A stretch of 64,000 nt of DNA from Nannochloris sp. 'desiccata'. Lineage: Eukaryota; Chlorophyta; Trebouxiophyceae; Chlorellales; Chlorellaceae. This document shows positions 7,405-52,150 of the stretch, in pieces; positions within the stretch are counted from its first letter, which is position 1; each line of letters starts with the position of its first letter. Position numbers and translations under genes: made by a program. Location of the stretch: contig JAGTXX020000017.1 in assembly GCA_019044685.2 (NCBI GenBank), positions 62,001 through 126,000 on the forward strand, read 5' to 3'. Under the pieces are notes generated by a model. It searched no databases. It was not told the origin of the DNA and worked only from the letters and a program-made list of their open reading frames with translations.

Positions 7405-8646
7405 TTATTTGTTGGCAAATTCAATACCAGCCTTGATGTTCTTAGTCAACAACTCCCTCATGACCTCCATGCCCTTTTGTTCAGAGGCAGACAAAGTTCC
7501 CAAAGGAAGGAACTCTTCAACGCCATTAGGTCCTAAACGGACTTTGCTGCTGAAATAAGAAAGACCTTCAACCAAACTGGATTCAACATAAGTGCATTCG
7601 ATGACATCCTTCTCTCCATCTAATCCACGGAGGCAAGATTCAGCAAAACGAGCAGCAGCATACGCCATAGATAAGGTAGCAGATCCAGCACCAGCCTTGG
7701 CTTCAACAACCTCAGTACCAGCGTTCTGAATGCGGACGGTAAGGGGCTCAAGCTCAGCGTCAGAGAAAGATACCTTGGGGGTAGCTTGGGAGAGCAAAGG
7801 CAAGATGGTCTCTCCGGCATGGCCACCAATAACAGGCACATTAACATCCTTCATTTGGAGACCCTTGAGCTCAGAAACAAAGGTGTTAGCACGAACAATA
7901 TCAAGGGTAGTGACACCCATGATCTTGCGTGCATCATAGACACCAGCCGCCTTGAGGATTTCAGCGGTGATGGGGACGGTGGAGTTGACAGGGTTGGAAA
8001 TAATGTTGACAATAGCATTAGGGCAATACTTTGCGACACCTTCAGCCAAAGCCTTGACGATTCCGGCGTTGATGTTGAAGAGATCGTCACGGGTCATTCC
8101 TGGCTTACGGGGCACGCCGGCGGGAATGATGACCAATTCAGCACCAGTAAGGGCACCAGCGAGCTCATCAGGACCGGTATATGCAGATACCTAGAGTTAT
8201 TACAATTGATAAGAAGGTCAGGTTAGGGATTGCATGGATTATAACTTAGTGGGTATATATGATCTTGTTTGCTTCTTGCTTCAATTTATAATATTGGGTC
8301 TTACCTTGCTGGGGGTGTTGCAGTGGGAGAGATCAGCGGCCACGCCTTTCACGTTTGCAATATCATAGAGAGCCAGCTCGGTAACCTTCTCATTCATCTT
8401 CAAGAGAAGGGACAAAGGCTGGCCGATGCCTCCACCTGCGCCAAGAACTGCCACCTTTCTGGCCTCAACAACTACGGCAGACCTGTCTGCGCGGGTTCTG
8501 ACAGTAGAGGGAGCAACAGAGAGCACATTACGCCTAGATGCTACCCGATCGCAGGCCTTAAGTCCATTGAAGGAAGCAATTCTAGTGTCCATGCTAGCCC
8601 TGGTCATACTGGCAGAAGCGATCATGGAAACAACAGTGGCTACCAC
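7405..8646 (-). CDS. MDH: Plastid NAD-malate dehydrogenase
   Basis: Two exons (8646-8305 and 8190-7405) give about 375 aa. The first ~62 residues are rich in Ala, Ser, Arg and Val, lack acids at the start and end in RADRSAVVVEA, like a green plastid transit peptide. The mature enzyme follows: NAD motif VAVLGAGGGIGQPLSLLLK, substrate loop IPAGVPRKPGMTRDDLF, ISNPVN, and the active-site GGHAGETILPLL with its catalytic His. It interconverts oxaloacetate and malate with NAD(H). Plastid MDH poises stromal redox and exports malate; in green algae the exported reducing power can support hydroxypyruvate reduction. Targeting is inferred from composition; a mitochondrial isoform is the alternative. Next to aminotransferase genes on the same strand. 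Confidence 0.88.
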
Positions 8647-9242
8647 AATGAAATAGATTAAAAGGAATTAAATAAGTAATTACTGCTATGATTGGCGATG
8701 GCATCCTTTTGAGTAATTAAGGACCCACTCTTAAGGTTTCATCTGGCTCGCCGTCAGCGCCTTGACCTCAATCAGACTTAAACCCCACTGAGCGATAGAT
8801 AGTATGCTGCCCCCCTGGCTCATCCCTGCTTCTATCTCGATAGTTATCCACATTATCATGCACAGTGTCTCATAAGGAGCGCCTAGGATACCTGGATCTG
8901 CAGGGGGTTCTCGGTTTCAAGCTCCAGGATTTGTTTGTTGACCCACTGTGTAAGGTCACCATAGAAGCTTCTAATCTATTAACTAATTTACACATTAACA
9001 AAGAGCTTGGAAAAAGCCGGGTTGAAAAACGCATCCAAATGCTACTGCCACAATGAGCAGCATTAAAAAAATCGCAACAAAACACTTTGAAAACTCTACT
9101 GCCAACCGCCCCTCCAAAGCACTACCTCTTCCATGAAACAGATAAGGTGGGGAGGATACAGGTCTCATACCAAAGTCACTTCATTCATTCATTCATTCAT
9201 TTATTACTTTCCAAATCAAATGTCAAATATCAATAAAATTTT
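8647..9242. repeat. Intergenic region with (TCAT)n microsatellite
   Basis: 596 bp between MDH (start side) and AlaAT (3' side). A five-unit TCAT tract lies at 9181-9200, just beyond the AlaAT stop. Reading frames at 8865-9085 show no family features and are taken as chance. Confidence 0.5.
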
Positions 9243-50282: not shown

Positions 50283-50537
50283 GACCAGTTAGTAGAGGTT
50301 ATTGATATGTGAACTGATAAAAATTTGAGCTCAAATGCCTACCCCACCACCTCATAAATCCTCCTACAATGCCATATGAGCGATTTAGAAAGTCGAGTCC
50401 AAAAGTGAATGGGTGAACTTGATGAACGTGCGCATTTCAGTGCAGATCAGCTAATTTAATTGATTTATTCTGCAGCTTTATTCTTATTTGCAAAGCATCA
50501 GTACGGGTCACCTTTAAGAAAAGCTTAATAACAGAAG
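50283..50537. promoter_or_regulatory. Candidate bidirectional promoter GYD1 / SGAT with palindrome
   Basis: 255 bp between the two divergent starts, containing the perfect 14-bp palindrome ATTTGAGCTCAAAT (50323-50336), 41 bp from the GYD1 start. Co-regulation is inferred from linked function and spacing. Confidence 0.5.
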
Positions 50538-52150
50538 ATGTTGGCCTCAAGAGCATTACGCAAGAGGTCTTTGCTCCAACGTGCTTGGAGCTCTATGCCC
50601 GCTTTTGCTGACGATGTGAGAATCGAAGATTTTTCACTGTTTATAGACCAGCCTAGAGTGCCAATGTGTTAGCTAATCGCCTTAAAATTCTCCTTTGAAA
50701 AAATGTAGGTTGTATCCGAAGTACCCAACTTACGCCCTGCATTCTCCCACGTTCCTGCTGGACGCAACCATCTCTTTGTGCCAGGTAAGATCCAATCTAG
50801 ACCCTCAACTCGCTTGCTCAGACACCCCACACCCCACAGATCGCAAACCTCTGGGGTAGTAGTAGTAGATTTCTGTCTTGCGTTGAACCTCGATTTCCAT
50901 TCTTTTTACACAGCTATTATCTATTAAAATAATTTAGGAACACCTTCTAACAACCGTATCAATCCTCATTCTTTCCTACAGGCCCTGTCAACATCCATGA
51001 GAATGTTATCCGCGCAATGCACGTCGGTGGACAAAACCACAGAGACGCCTGGTTTGCTGATTTCTACAAGAAATCCCTGGAAGAGTCCAAGATGATCTTT
51101 AACACCACTGCTGGGACCCCTATCTTCTATCCTGGTACCGGTACAGGTGGCTGGGAGTCTGCTTTGACCAACACGCTCTCACCCGGTGACAAGGTTGTTA
51201 CTTTCCGTTATGGTATGTTCTCTCACCTCTGGATTGACATGATGCAGCGCATGGGTCTTGAAGTTGAGGTCATTGACTGCCGTTGGGGAGATGGTGCTGA
51301 TGAAGAGAAACTCGCTGAGGTCCTCGCCAAAGATACTGAAAAGAAAATTAAAGCCGTCTGTGTAGTACACAATGAAACTACCACCGGAGTAACCTCCGAC
51401 ATCGGTGAAGTCCGTAAGACTATGGATTCTAAATCCCATCCTGCTCTTCTTTTGGTGGATGGTGTCTCCTCCATCGGTGCGCTTGATTTCCAATTCGACA
51501 AGTGGCGTGTTGATGTTGCCGTCACCGGTTCTCAGAAGGCTCTTTCTCTTCCTACTGGTCTTGCCGTGATCTGCGTTTCTGATAAAGCTATTGAAGCCTC
51601 CAAAACTGCAATTTCTAAACGGTGCTACTTTGACTGGGCAGATATGCTCCGTACTAACCCCAGTGGGAATGTTCCCTACACCCCGGAAACTCAAATGTTA
51701 TACGGACTCCGGGAATCTCTGAAGATGATGCGTGAGGAAGGTGGCATGACAGCTGTAGCAGCAAGACATCATCGTTTGGCTGAAGGTACCCGTAAAGCAG
51801 TTGAAGGCTGGGGCTTAAAACTCCTTTGCAAGGACCCTCGTTGGTATTCAGATTCCCTCACTGTCGTTGAAGTGCCCGAAGGAATCGATTCACAAAAGAT
51901 TGTGGATATTGCTTACGGAAAATATAACTTATCTCTTGGTATTGGTTTAGATAAGGTCAAGGGTAAGGTGTTCCGCATTGGACATCTTGGTAACATGGAT
52001 GAGCTCATGTTGGGGGGTGCCTTGTGCGGTGTAGAGATGGTATTGAAGGATGCTGGAGTGCCTATTACCATTGGCAGCGGTATTTCTAAAGCCACCGAGT
52101 ACTGGAGACAGACAGCAAAGCCTATTCCTACCAGAGAGACCCTTCTTTAG
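50538..52150 (+). CDS. SGAT: Serine:glyoxylate aminotransferase
   Basis: Three exons: 50538-50615, 50709-50784 and 50982-52150; about 440 aa, longer than the ~400 aa of land-plant SGAT because of a Leu/Arg/Ser N-terminal extension (MLASRALRKRSLLQRAWSSM) that looks mitochondrial. Core: GRNHLFVPGPVNIHENVIRA, HVGGQNHRDAWFADFYKKSL, TPIFYPGTGTGGWESAL, the PLP lysine in VTGSQKALSLPTGLAV, SKRCYFDWADML. It transfers the amino group of serine to glyoxylate, giving hydroxypyruvate and glycine, feeding HPR1 next along the window. No C-terminal PTS1 (ends RETLL; land-plant forms end SRI). A second class-V aminotransferase at 11298 is a distinct subfamily. Confidence 0.95.

What the first reader, a model, noticed from the sequence alone, without database searches (positions are those of the whole stretch)
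7405..52150. Photorespiratory and glyoxylate genes cluster in a nuclear genome
In about 45 kb I see glycolate dehydrogenase (46812), serine:glyoxylate (50538) and alanine:glyoxylate (11298) aminotransferases, an alanine aminotransferase of the glutamate:glyoxylate type (9243), hydroxypyruvate reductase (42931), NADH-GOGAT (33638), plastid NAD- and NADP-malate dehydrogenases (7405, 20308) and a BOU/CAC-like carrier (13165). Eight or nine of about 31 genes serve one pathway and its redox and nitrogen support. Eukaryotic primary-metabolism genes are normally scattered. Glycine decarboxylase, SHMT and glycerate kinase are not in the window.
Basis: partly seen in the sequence, partly recalled or inferred. 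Interest (0 to 1): 0.85.

Follow-up and report, generated by a model that had tools for sequence, protein, structure and literature searches.

The report
Photorespiration gene neighbourhood in Nannochloris alga
In a small green alga, five or more genes for recycling the waste product of photosynthesis sit near each other in the nucleus, an arrangement shared with Chlorella relatives and already reported in a sister genus, here with a blue-light-sensor-like gene in the middle.

Summary
The window is nuclear DNA of a trebouxiophyte green alga, Nannochloris sp. 'desiccata' or very near it. Within 45 kb it carries glycolate dehydrogenase, serine:glyoxylate and alanine:glyoxylate aminotransferases, an alanine/glutamate:glyoxylate-type aminotransferase, hydroxypyruvate reductase, a GOGAT of NADH type, NAD- and NADP-malate dehydrogenases and an SLC25 carrier. 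Five of ten located core loci in one 45 kb stretch has a (post hoc) chance bound of 3e-8 to 5e-7. The cluster is not an assembly artefact: a colinear 99.3-99.6% identical copy lies on contig C9, and gene tags show near linkage in Chlorella vulgaris, Micractinium and Parachlorella. Of 107 listed contigs of 10 kb or more, 21 (20 besides this alga) hold at least two of five test genes; a shifted-length control gave none. Outside Trebouxiophyceae the genes are mostly apart. The pathway is incomplete here: GDC-P, GDC-T and SHMT lie elsewhere. The kind is known: a photorespiration cluster is cited as reported in Picochlorum (2016) and was recaptured across green algae (PMC7826186). Possibly new: a kinase-less tandem-LOV protein, both cysteine motifs kept, between hydroxypyruvate reductase and glycolate dehydrogenase. 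Best reading: a selected gene neighbourhood; co-regulation is inferred, not shown.

The parts
7405..8625 (-). NAD-malate dehydrogenase, two exons seen (7408-8190 and within 8284-8625), with a transit-peptide-like N-terminus
   Evidence: Pfam Ldh_1 N+C; NCBIfam TIGR01772 above cut-off; start and transit peptide by eye
9243..10950 (-). alanine aminotransferase / glutamate:glyoxylate aminotransferase-type enzyme (main exon 9246-10538, first ATG 10950)
   Evidence: Pfam Aminotran_1_2; best PDB 3tcm alanine aminotransferase 2, 515 bits; start read
11298..12741 (+). alanine:glyoxylate aminotransferase (AGXT type), two exons, divergent from the previous gene (347 bp between start codons; a second in-frame ATG is at 11388)
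   Evidence: Pfam Aminotran_5; best PDB 2huf/1vjo; exon map with P0252
13165..14593 (-). SLC25 mitochondrial-carrier-family transporter, several exons; subtype unresolved, 5' end by eye
   Evidence: Pfam Mito_carr in 13168-13728 and 13722-14069; no family in 14438-14752; start read
20648..21790 (+). NADP-malate dehydrogenase with the C-terminal extension of the plastid enzyme (5' end not modelled)
   Evidence: NCBIfam TIGR01757 685.5 vs cut-off 598.3; best PDB 1civ NADP-MDH
34503..40942 (+). NADH-type glutamate synthase (GOGAT), two large exons; further 5' exon(s) upstream not modelled
   Evidence: GATase_2, Glu_syn_central, Glu_synthase, GXGXG, Fer4_20, Pyr_redox_2
42931..44299 (-). hydroxypyruvate reductase, exons 44299-44168 and 44067-42934
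   Evidence: 2-Hacid_dh; exon map with P0249; relatives named hydroxypyruvate reductase
44891..46190 (+). tandem LOV-LOV protein without kinase domain; motifs NKNCRFLQ and GRNCRMLQG; intron 45072-45197
   Evidence: PAS_9 domains; translations; start and splice sites by eye; PDB LOV2 matches, best 142.9 bits
46812..50282 (-). glycolate dehydrogenase (fused GlcD-like FAD + FeS + CCG), two exons
   Evidence: Pfam; 99% to Ndes2526B_g09647, 70% to Chlamydomonas 06g288700; exon map with P0009
50283..50537 (.). 255 bp between the start codons of glycolate dehydrogenase and SGT: candidate bidirectional promoter
   Evidence: start codons; adjacent tags of the two genes also in Chlorella vulgaris
50538..52150 (+). 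serine:glyoxylate aminotransferase, probably three exons
   Evidence: Pfam Aminotran_5; best PDB 6pk1 456 bits; 98% to Ndes2526B_g09646; exon map
22411..25307 (.). GDP-mannose 4,6-dehydratase (-) and GDP-L-fucose synthase-like gene (+), a divergent pair of consecutive steps inside the block, not photorespiratory
   Evidence: dehydratase above its cut-off; fucose synthase 472.9 against a cut-off of 500
14932..20077 (.). interspersed genes without a clear link: RraA-like (+), ETF beta-like (-), DEAH-type helicase (+)

Best explanation
This is a conserved functional gene neighbourhood for the middle of the C2 (photorespiratory) pathway in trebouxiophyte green algae: glycolate to glyoxylate (glycolate dehydrogenase), glyoxylate transamination (AGT, AlaAT/GGT type, SGT), hydroxypyruvate to glycerate (HPR), with glutamate supply (GOGAT) and possibly reductant shuttling (malate dehydrogenases) nearby. 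Shown: gene identities, proximity beyond chance, a second colinear copy on C9, linkage in other genera. Inferred: linkage is kept because the genes are co-regulated, helped by two head-to-head pairs with short intergenic stretches (glycolate dehydrogenase|SGT, 255 bp; AlaAT/GGT|AGT, 347 bp) and shared chromatin, so that glyoxylate and hydroxypyruvate do not build up. It is most likely the Nannochloris member of the photorespiration cluster already reported in Picochlorum.
For: Identities. Among 8 distinct Aminotran_5 loci (12 matches, copies collapsed; 12 of 23 candidates scored) SGT and AGT look like the only ones of their type: of the six others, five were compared and none aligns to SGT or AGT above 30% identity; the sixth, C5:685641, was not. 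Statistics. Tags: Chlorella vulgaris GlcDH D9Q98_005775, SGT _005776, AGT _005786; Micractinium CCAP 211/92 AGT ABPG77_007851, HPR _007856, GlcDH _007858; Parachlorella kessleri AGT N2152v2_009575, HPR _009589. 21 of 107 contigs (20 besides this alga's own) carry two or more test genes; 32 pair matches against 0.000 per shift in the control. An AlaAT-type and an AGT row share a contig length of 4,528 bases (P0277, P0298; orientation not seen, and below the 10 kb limit of the control). Prior report: PMC7826186 sections 5, 6, 11; it says that four previously described neighbourhoods, not named there, are significantly co-expressed in C. reinhardtii. PMC12198440 passages say that some Picochlorum clusters, which ones not said, are co-expressed under salinity stress.
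Against: No expression data for this species were available. The three shared upstream regions tested have no common 8-mer, one 7-mer (1.35 expected), 21 common 6-mers (13.1 expected, maximum 25 in 200 shuffles) and no clear excess of the recalled GANTTNC low-CO2 element. GDC-P, GDC-T and SHMT are elsewhere. Unrelated genes (helicase, GDP-fucose genes, histone H2A, iron-permease family) lie in between. How often other pathways cluster in this genome was not measured, and the window was chosen because it looked clustered. In the WJX-tagged genomes (Myrmecia, Symbiochloris, Apatococcus) the tags of linked genes are far apart in number; two such tags lie on one 444 kb contig, so that series is probably not in gene order, but nearness is not shown there.
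Confidence: 0.72

Rival explanations
1. An old block of conserved synteny that happens to contain several photorespiratory genes, kept by slow rearrangement and not by selection on the pathway.
For: Intervening unrelated genes in the window; a divergent pair also occurs for GDP-fucose synthesis. Synteny within Chlorellales is plausible, and the intervening genes in the relatives were not seen.
Against: The number of intervening genes differs: AGT to HPR is 5 tags in Micractinium and AGT to SGT 10 tags in Chlorella, against roughly 14 and 17 here by an incomplete hand count. The initial co-location is itself improbable.
Confidence: 0.22
2. Assembly artefact: the window lies in a contig (C17) whose 64 kb recurs as a perfect inverted copy, so the cluster is a misjoin.
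For: C17:62001-126000 matches C17:534438-598437 inverted, 64,000 of 64,000 bases, no mismatch; paired hits sum to 660438. C15 shows a similar inverted pair.
Against: The same order is on C9 at 99.3-99.6% identity over 64 kb with 10 of 10 tested cluster exons free of stops, and linkage recurs in other genera.
Confidence: 0.02
3. Post-hoc pattern: with loose pathway boundaries some window of any genome would look clustered.
For: No other pathway was tested as a control.
Against: With core enzymes alone the bound is still 3e-8 to 5e-7, and the other genera were not used to choose the window.
Confidence: 0.04

Closest known systems
Photorespiration gene cluster of Picochlorum (Foflonker et al. 2016, Algal Res. 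16:465; paper not held, seen only as cited in PMC7826186)
   Same: Same pathway, sister genus, nuclear, cited as a previously reported functional cluster.
   Different: Its gene content could not be read, so whether it includes GOGAT, the MDHs, the AlaAT|AGT pair and the LOV gene is unknown.
Conserved green algal gene neighbourhoods (Foflonker and Blaby-Haas, PMC7826186; abstract, sections 5 and 6, part 1 of section 11 and passages seen)
   Same: Photorespiration is one of five previously reported clusters recaptured among 317 neighbourhoods.
   Different: Nannochloris was not among the ten genomes; the content of table 1 is not in the held text.
Nitrate assimilation gene cluster of green algae (passages of PMC12198440 and PMC7826186)
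   Same: Primary-metabolism genes of one pathway clustered in a green algal nucleus; in Picochlorum eight co-localised genes fall together under herbicide.
   Different: Different pathway, includes transporters.
Plant-type kinase-less LOV proteins (PLP/LLP; recalled, no call)
   Same: Two PAS/LOV domains and no kinase.
   Different: Here the gene sits between hydroxypyruvate reductase and glycolate dehydrogenase; the subfamily was not determined.

Membership tests
Photorespiration gene cluster (Picochlorum type) | Several C2-pathway genes adjacent or near in one nuclear locus | tested here: met
   5 core enzymes plus GOGAT within 45 kb
Photorespiration gene cluster (Picochlorum type) | Proximity beyond chance | tested here: met
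   Union bounds 3.2e-8 to 5.2e-7, post hoc, uniform null
Photorespiration gene cluster (Picochlorum type) | Proximity conserved in other species | tested here: met
   Near tags in 3 named genera; 9 of 10 other named Trebouxiophyceae with two or more listed genes have at least one pair on one contig, counted by eye, in 4 of the 9 only on a megabase contig without near tags
Photorespiration gene cluster (Picochlorum type) | Same gene content as the published cluster | not testable with these tools
   Foflonker 2016 not held (with a recalled DOI); table 1 of PMC7826186 empty in the text
Photorespiration gene cluster (Picochlorum type) | Co-expression of members | not testable with these tools
   No expression data; general literature statements only, for other species
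Complete pathway cluster (operon-like) | All pathway steps in the locus | tested here: not met
   GDC-P, GDC-T and SHMT elsewhere
LOV photoreceptor | LOV core with the cysteine of the NCR(F/M)LQ motif | tested here: met
   Both domains; meaning of the motif is established knowledge; flavin binding not testable here
Phototropin | C-terminal Ser/Thr kinase | tested here: not met
   Frame ends at 46187 and Pfam lists only PAS families

The most novel reading that the evidence does not exclude
The tandem-LOV protein encoded between hydroxypyruvate reductase and glycolate dehydrogenase is a blue-light input dedicated to this neighbourhood: a photoreceptor kept beside the photorespiratory genes because it tunes their expression or activity to light before oxygenation products build up. 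In Micractinium exactly one gene tag (ABPG77_007857) separates the same two genes, as here; whether it is the LOV gene was not tested.
Probability: 0.12. Interest if true: 0.75.

Novelty: new member of a known kind. Interest (0 to 1): 0.42.

Why it matters
Plants and algae lose fixed carbon to photorespiration, and how its genes are coordinated across plastid, mitochondrion and cytosol is a practical question. A nuclear neighbourhood kept across Chlorella-type algae is a natural handle on that regulation and a compact target for testing promoters. It adds a primary-metabolism case to the evidence that eukaryotic gene order can be functional. If the LOV gene is linked throughout Chlorellales, it would point to a direct light input to photorespiration.

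Tried and rejected
Chimeric assembly as the cause of the cluster: rejected, because the order recurs on C9 and linkage in other genera. Chance: rejected under a uniform null. Complete pathway in one place: rejected. Viral source: a scan of viral contigs for the glycolate dehydrogenase found no relative; its named best relatives are mostly green algae (120 of 7,997 rows shown). Shared promoter motif: looked for in three upstream regions, nothing convincing. More pathway genes just outside: of 24 ORFs of 110 residues or more listed on the C9 flanks (about 15 kb upstream, 9 kb downstream), 16 were scanned (10, 6; two of these run into the matching region) and none is photorespiratory; 4 of the 16 had no family. 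Phosphoglycolate phosphatase (PF13344): never located, as the machine did not answer. The Pfam search for Aminotran_1_2 scored 9 of 22 candidates and missed the window's own gene, so that list is incomplete; P0004 was then used. Matching contigs by length: contigs under 10 kb were left out of the count after one chance coincidence was seen by eye (3,756 bases, P0053 and the Chromera row P0235). Rows without a contig length were left out too.
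Full report
What the window is. The window is G000:C17:62001-126000 of a 21.55 Mb, 18-contig genome. Its glycolate dehydrogenase is 99% identical to Ndes2526B_g09647 and its SGT 98% to Ndes2526B_g09646 of Nannochloris sp. 'desiccata', and contig C9 (1,932,830 bases) has the same length as the longest contig listed for Ndes2526B_g04604. PMC12633428 (passages) lists N. desiccata UTEX 2526 at 21.6 Mb and 45.0% GC and names the genus among trebouxiophytes with diploid assemblies; its table also gives 187 in what I take to be the contig column, against 18 contigs here, so the assembly version is not settled.

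Genes. Relatives' proteins fix several starts: glycolate dehydrogenase begins at 50282 on the minus strand and SGT at 50538 on the plus strand, 255 bases apart; HPR begins at 44299. AGT begins at 11298 (a second in-frame ATG is at 11388, where the closest relative's model starts), and the AlaAT/GGT-type gene at 10950 (by eye). The AlaAT/GGT-type enzyme has one 52% identical paralogue on C6, so its exact role is open. Two of five distinct MDH loci are here. The carrier is SLC25 family only.

It encodes two PAS/LOV domains and no kinase; both keep the cysteine motif, NKNCRFLQ and GRNCRMLQG, and LOV domains of phototropins and related proteins are its best PDB matches (second exon).

What is missing. 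GDC-P is on C15, GDC-T on C10, SHMT on C7, C6 and C9:999530; a second glutamate synthase is on C15 (ferredoxin type is an inference). On C9, 16 of the 24 ORFs listed in about 15 kb upstream and 9 kb downstream of the matching region were scanned and show no further photorespiratory gene. Phosphoglycolate phosphatase and glycerate kinase were not located.

Chance. For ten located core loci (GlcDH, SGT, AGT, AlaAT/GGT, HPR, GDC-P, GDC-T, three SHMT), the union bound for five in some 45 kb is 3.2e-8 (20 Mb) to 5.2e-7 (10 Mb). With twelve it is 1.0e-7 to 1.6e-6, and with about 55 family members and eight in the window 2.8e-9 to 3.6e-7. The number 55 is a rough tally. All are post hoc, assume uniform placement, and no other pathway was compared.

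Linkage elsewhere. The protein searches show, for each hit, its longest contig and often a gene tag. Chlorella vulgaris: GlcDH 005775, SGT 005776, AGT 005786. Micractinium CCAP 211/92: AGT 007851, HPR 007856, GlcDH 007858. Parachlorella kessleri: AGT 009575, HPR 009589. Copied into a script, 21 of 107 contigs of at least 10 kb carry two or more of the five test genes (one of the 21 is this alga's own), with 32 pair matches; shifting the lengths by 1 to 50 bases either way gave 0.000 matches per shift. One unnamed 323,881-base contig carries four. By eye, of 10 other named Trebouxiophyceae with two or more listed genes, 9 have at least one pair on one contig and Elliptochloris has none. In four of the 9 (C. 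sorokiniana, Myrmecia, Coccomyxa sp. Obi, Apatococcus) the contig is of megabase size and no near tags show nearness, so linkage there may be loose. In Symbiochloris GlcDH and SGT share a 444 kb contig although their tags are far apart in number, so the tags of that series are probably not in gene order. In Myrmecia SGT, and in Symbiochloris HPR, is on another contig. Auxenochlorella was left out because its rows come from two assemblies. Of 12 named algae outside the class, 11 have the listed genes on different contigs (assemblies may differ between rows); in Chlamydomonas GlcDH and HPR share chromosome 6 about 135 gene numbers apart (number spacing recalled) and SGT is on chromosome 1. Only the best 120 rows of each search are visible, so absences mean little. 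Class membership was looked up for four species and is otherwise recalled.

Copies and assembly. The whole window recurs on C17 as a perfect inverted copy (64,000 of 64,000 bases) and on C9 in two colinear pieces of 99.6 and 99.3% identity, with a 1,490-base insertion on C9 near window 41178. Ten of ten tested cluster exons are free of stops on C9. The centre of C17 (320001-340000) shows no inverted match to itself, and its first 10 kb and last 3.4 kb none to each other, so the repeat has limits that were not found. A fold-back or haplotype misjoin in a diploid assembly is the likeliest cause, but a true duplication is not excluded. None of this affects the cluster on C9.

Regulation. The three intergenic regions tested share no 8-mer, one 7-mer (1.35 expected from shuffles) and 21 6-mers (13.1 expected, maximum 25 of 200 shuffles); the recalled GANTTNC element occurs once in each and is not clearly enriched. 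Co-regulation is therefore an inference from gene order and from the literature.

Literature. PMC7826186 (abstract, sections 5 and 6, part 1 of section 11, and passages) names photorespiration among five previously reported clusters, citing Foflonker 2016 on Picochlorum, which is not held. PMC12198440 (passages) says that a photorespiration cluster is among the functional clusters of Picochlorum and that some clusters are co-expressed under salinity stress. Passages of PMC11892635, PMC11092101 and PMC11156908 add nothing on this cluster. Ten paper searches were run. Among the papers listed (some lists were cut, for example 15 of 74) I saw none whose title or abstract start concerns a Nannochloris photorespiration cluster; the search that combined LOV with photorespiration and cluster terms listed one review that I did not open. 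That is weak evidence of absence, as most subscription papers are not held.

Verdict. Real, non-random and conserved; a new member of a known kind. The possible new elements are the wider content (GOGAT, AlaAT|AGT pair) and the tandem-LOV gene.

Noticed in passing
window 44891-46187 (+): Kinase-less tandem-LOV protein with both cysteine motifs, between hydroxypyruvate reductase and glycolate dehydrogenase; one gene tag also separates these two genes in Micractinium.
   Followed up: partly
window 22411-25307: GDP-mannose 4,6-dehydratase and a GDP-L-fucose synthase-like gene, consecutive steps, form another divergent pair inside the block.
   Followed up: no
G000:C17 (653,437 bases): The window's 64 kb recurs as a perfect inverted copy at C17:534438-598437; the contig's middle is not part of the palindrome.
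   Followed up: partly
G000:C15:41420-1223678: Second inverted pair: a glutamate synthase gene and GDC-P each occur twice in opposite orientation; the coordinate sums differ by about 2.9 kb.
   Followed up: no
G000:C9:1186437-1187926 (L026:6437-7926): A 1,490-base insertion absent from the window copy, with CGCCGGGT-rich ends in inverted orientation; may be a DNA transposon polymorphic between copies.
   Followed up: partly
G000:C7:492360-497585: An SHMT gene and a GlcD/D-2-hydroxyacid-dehydrogenase-like gene (FAD-oxidase_C) lie 3.3 kb apart.
   Followed up: no
L030:6425-7108 (G000:C9, about 8 kb upstream of the window's match): PLP synthase (SOR_SNZ family), maker of the cofactor of the three aminotransferases of the cluster; may be coincidence.
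   Followed up: no
window 28335-30320 (+): 662-residue open frame without a significant Pfam family, inside the cluster.
   Followed up: no
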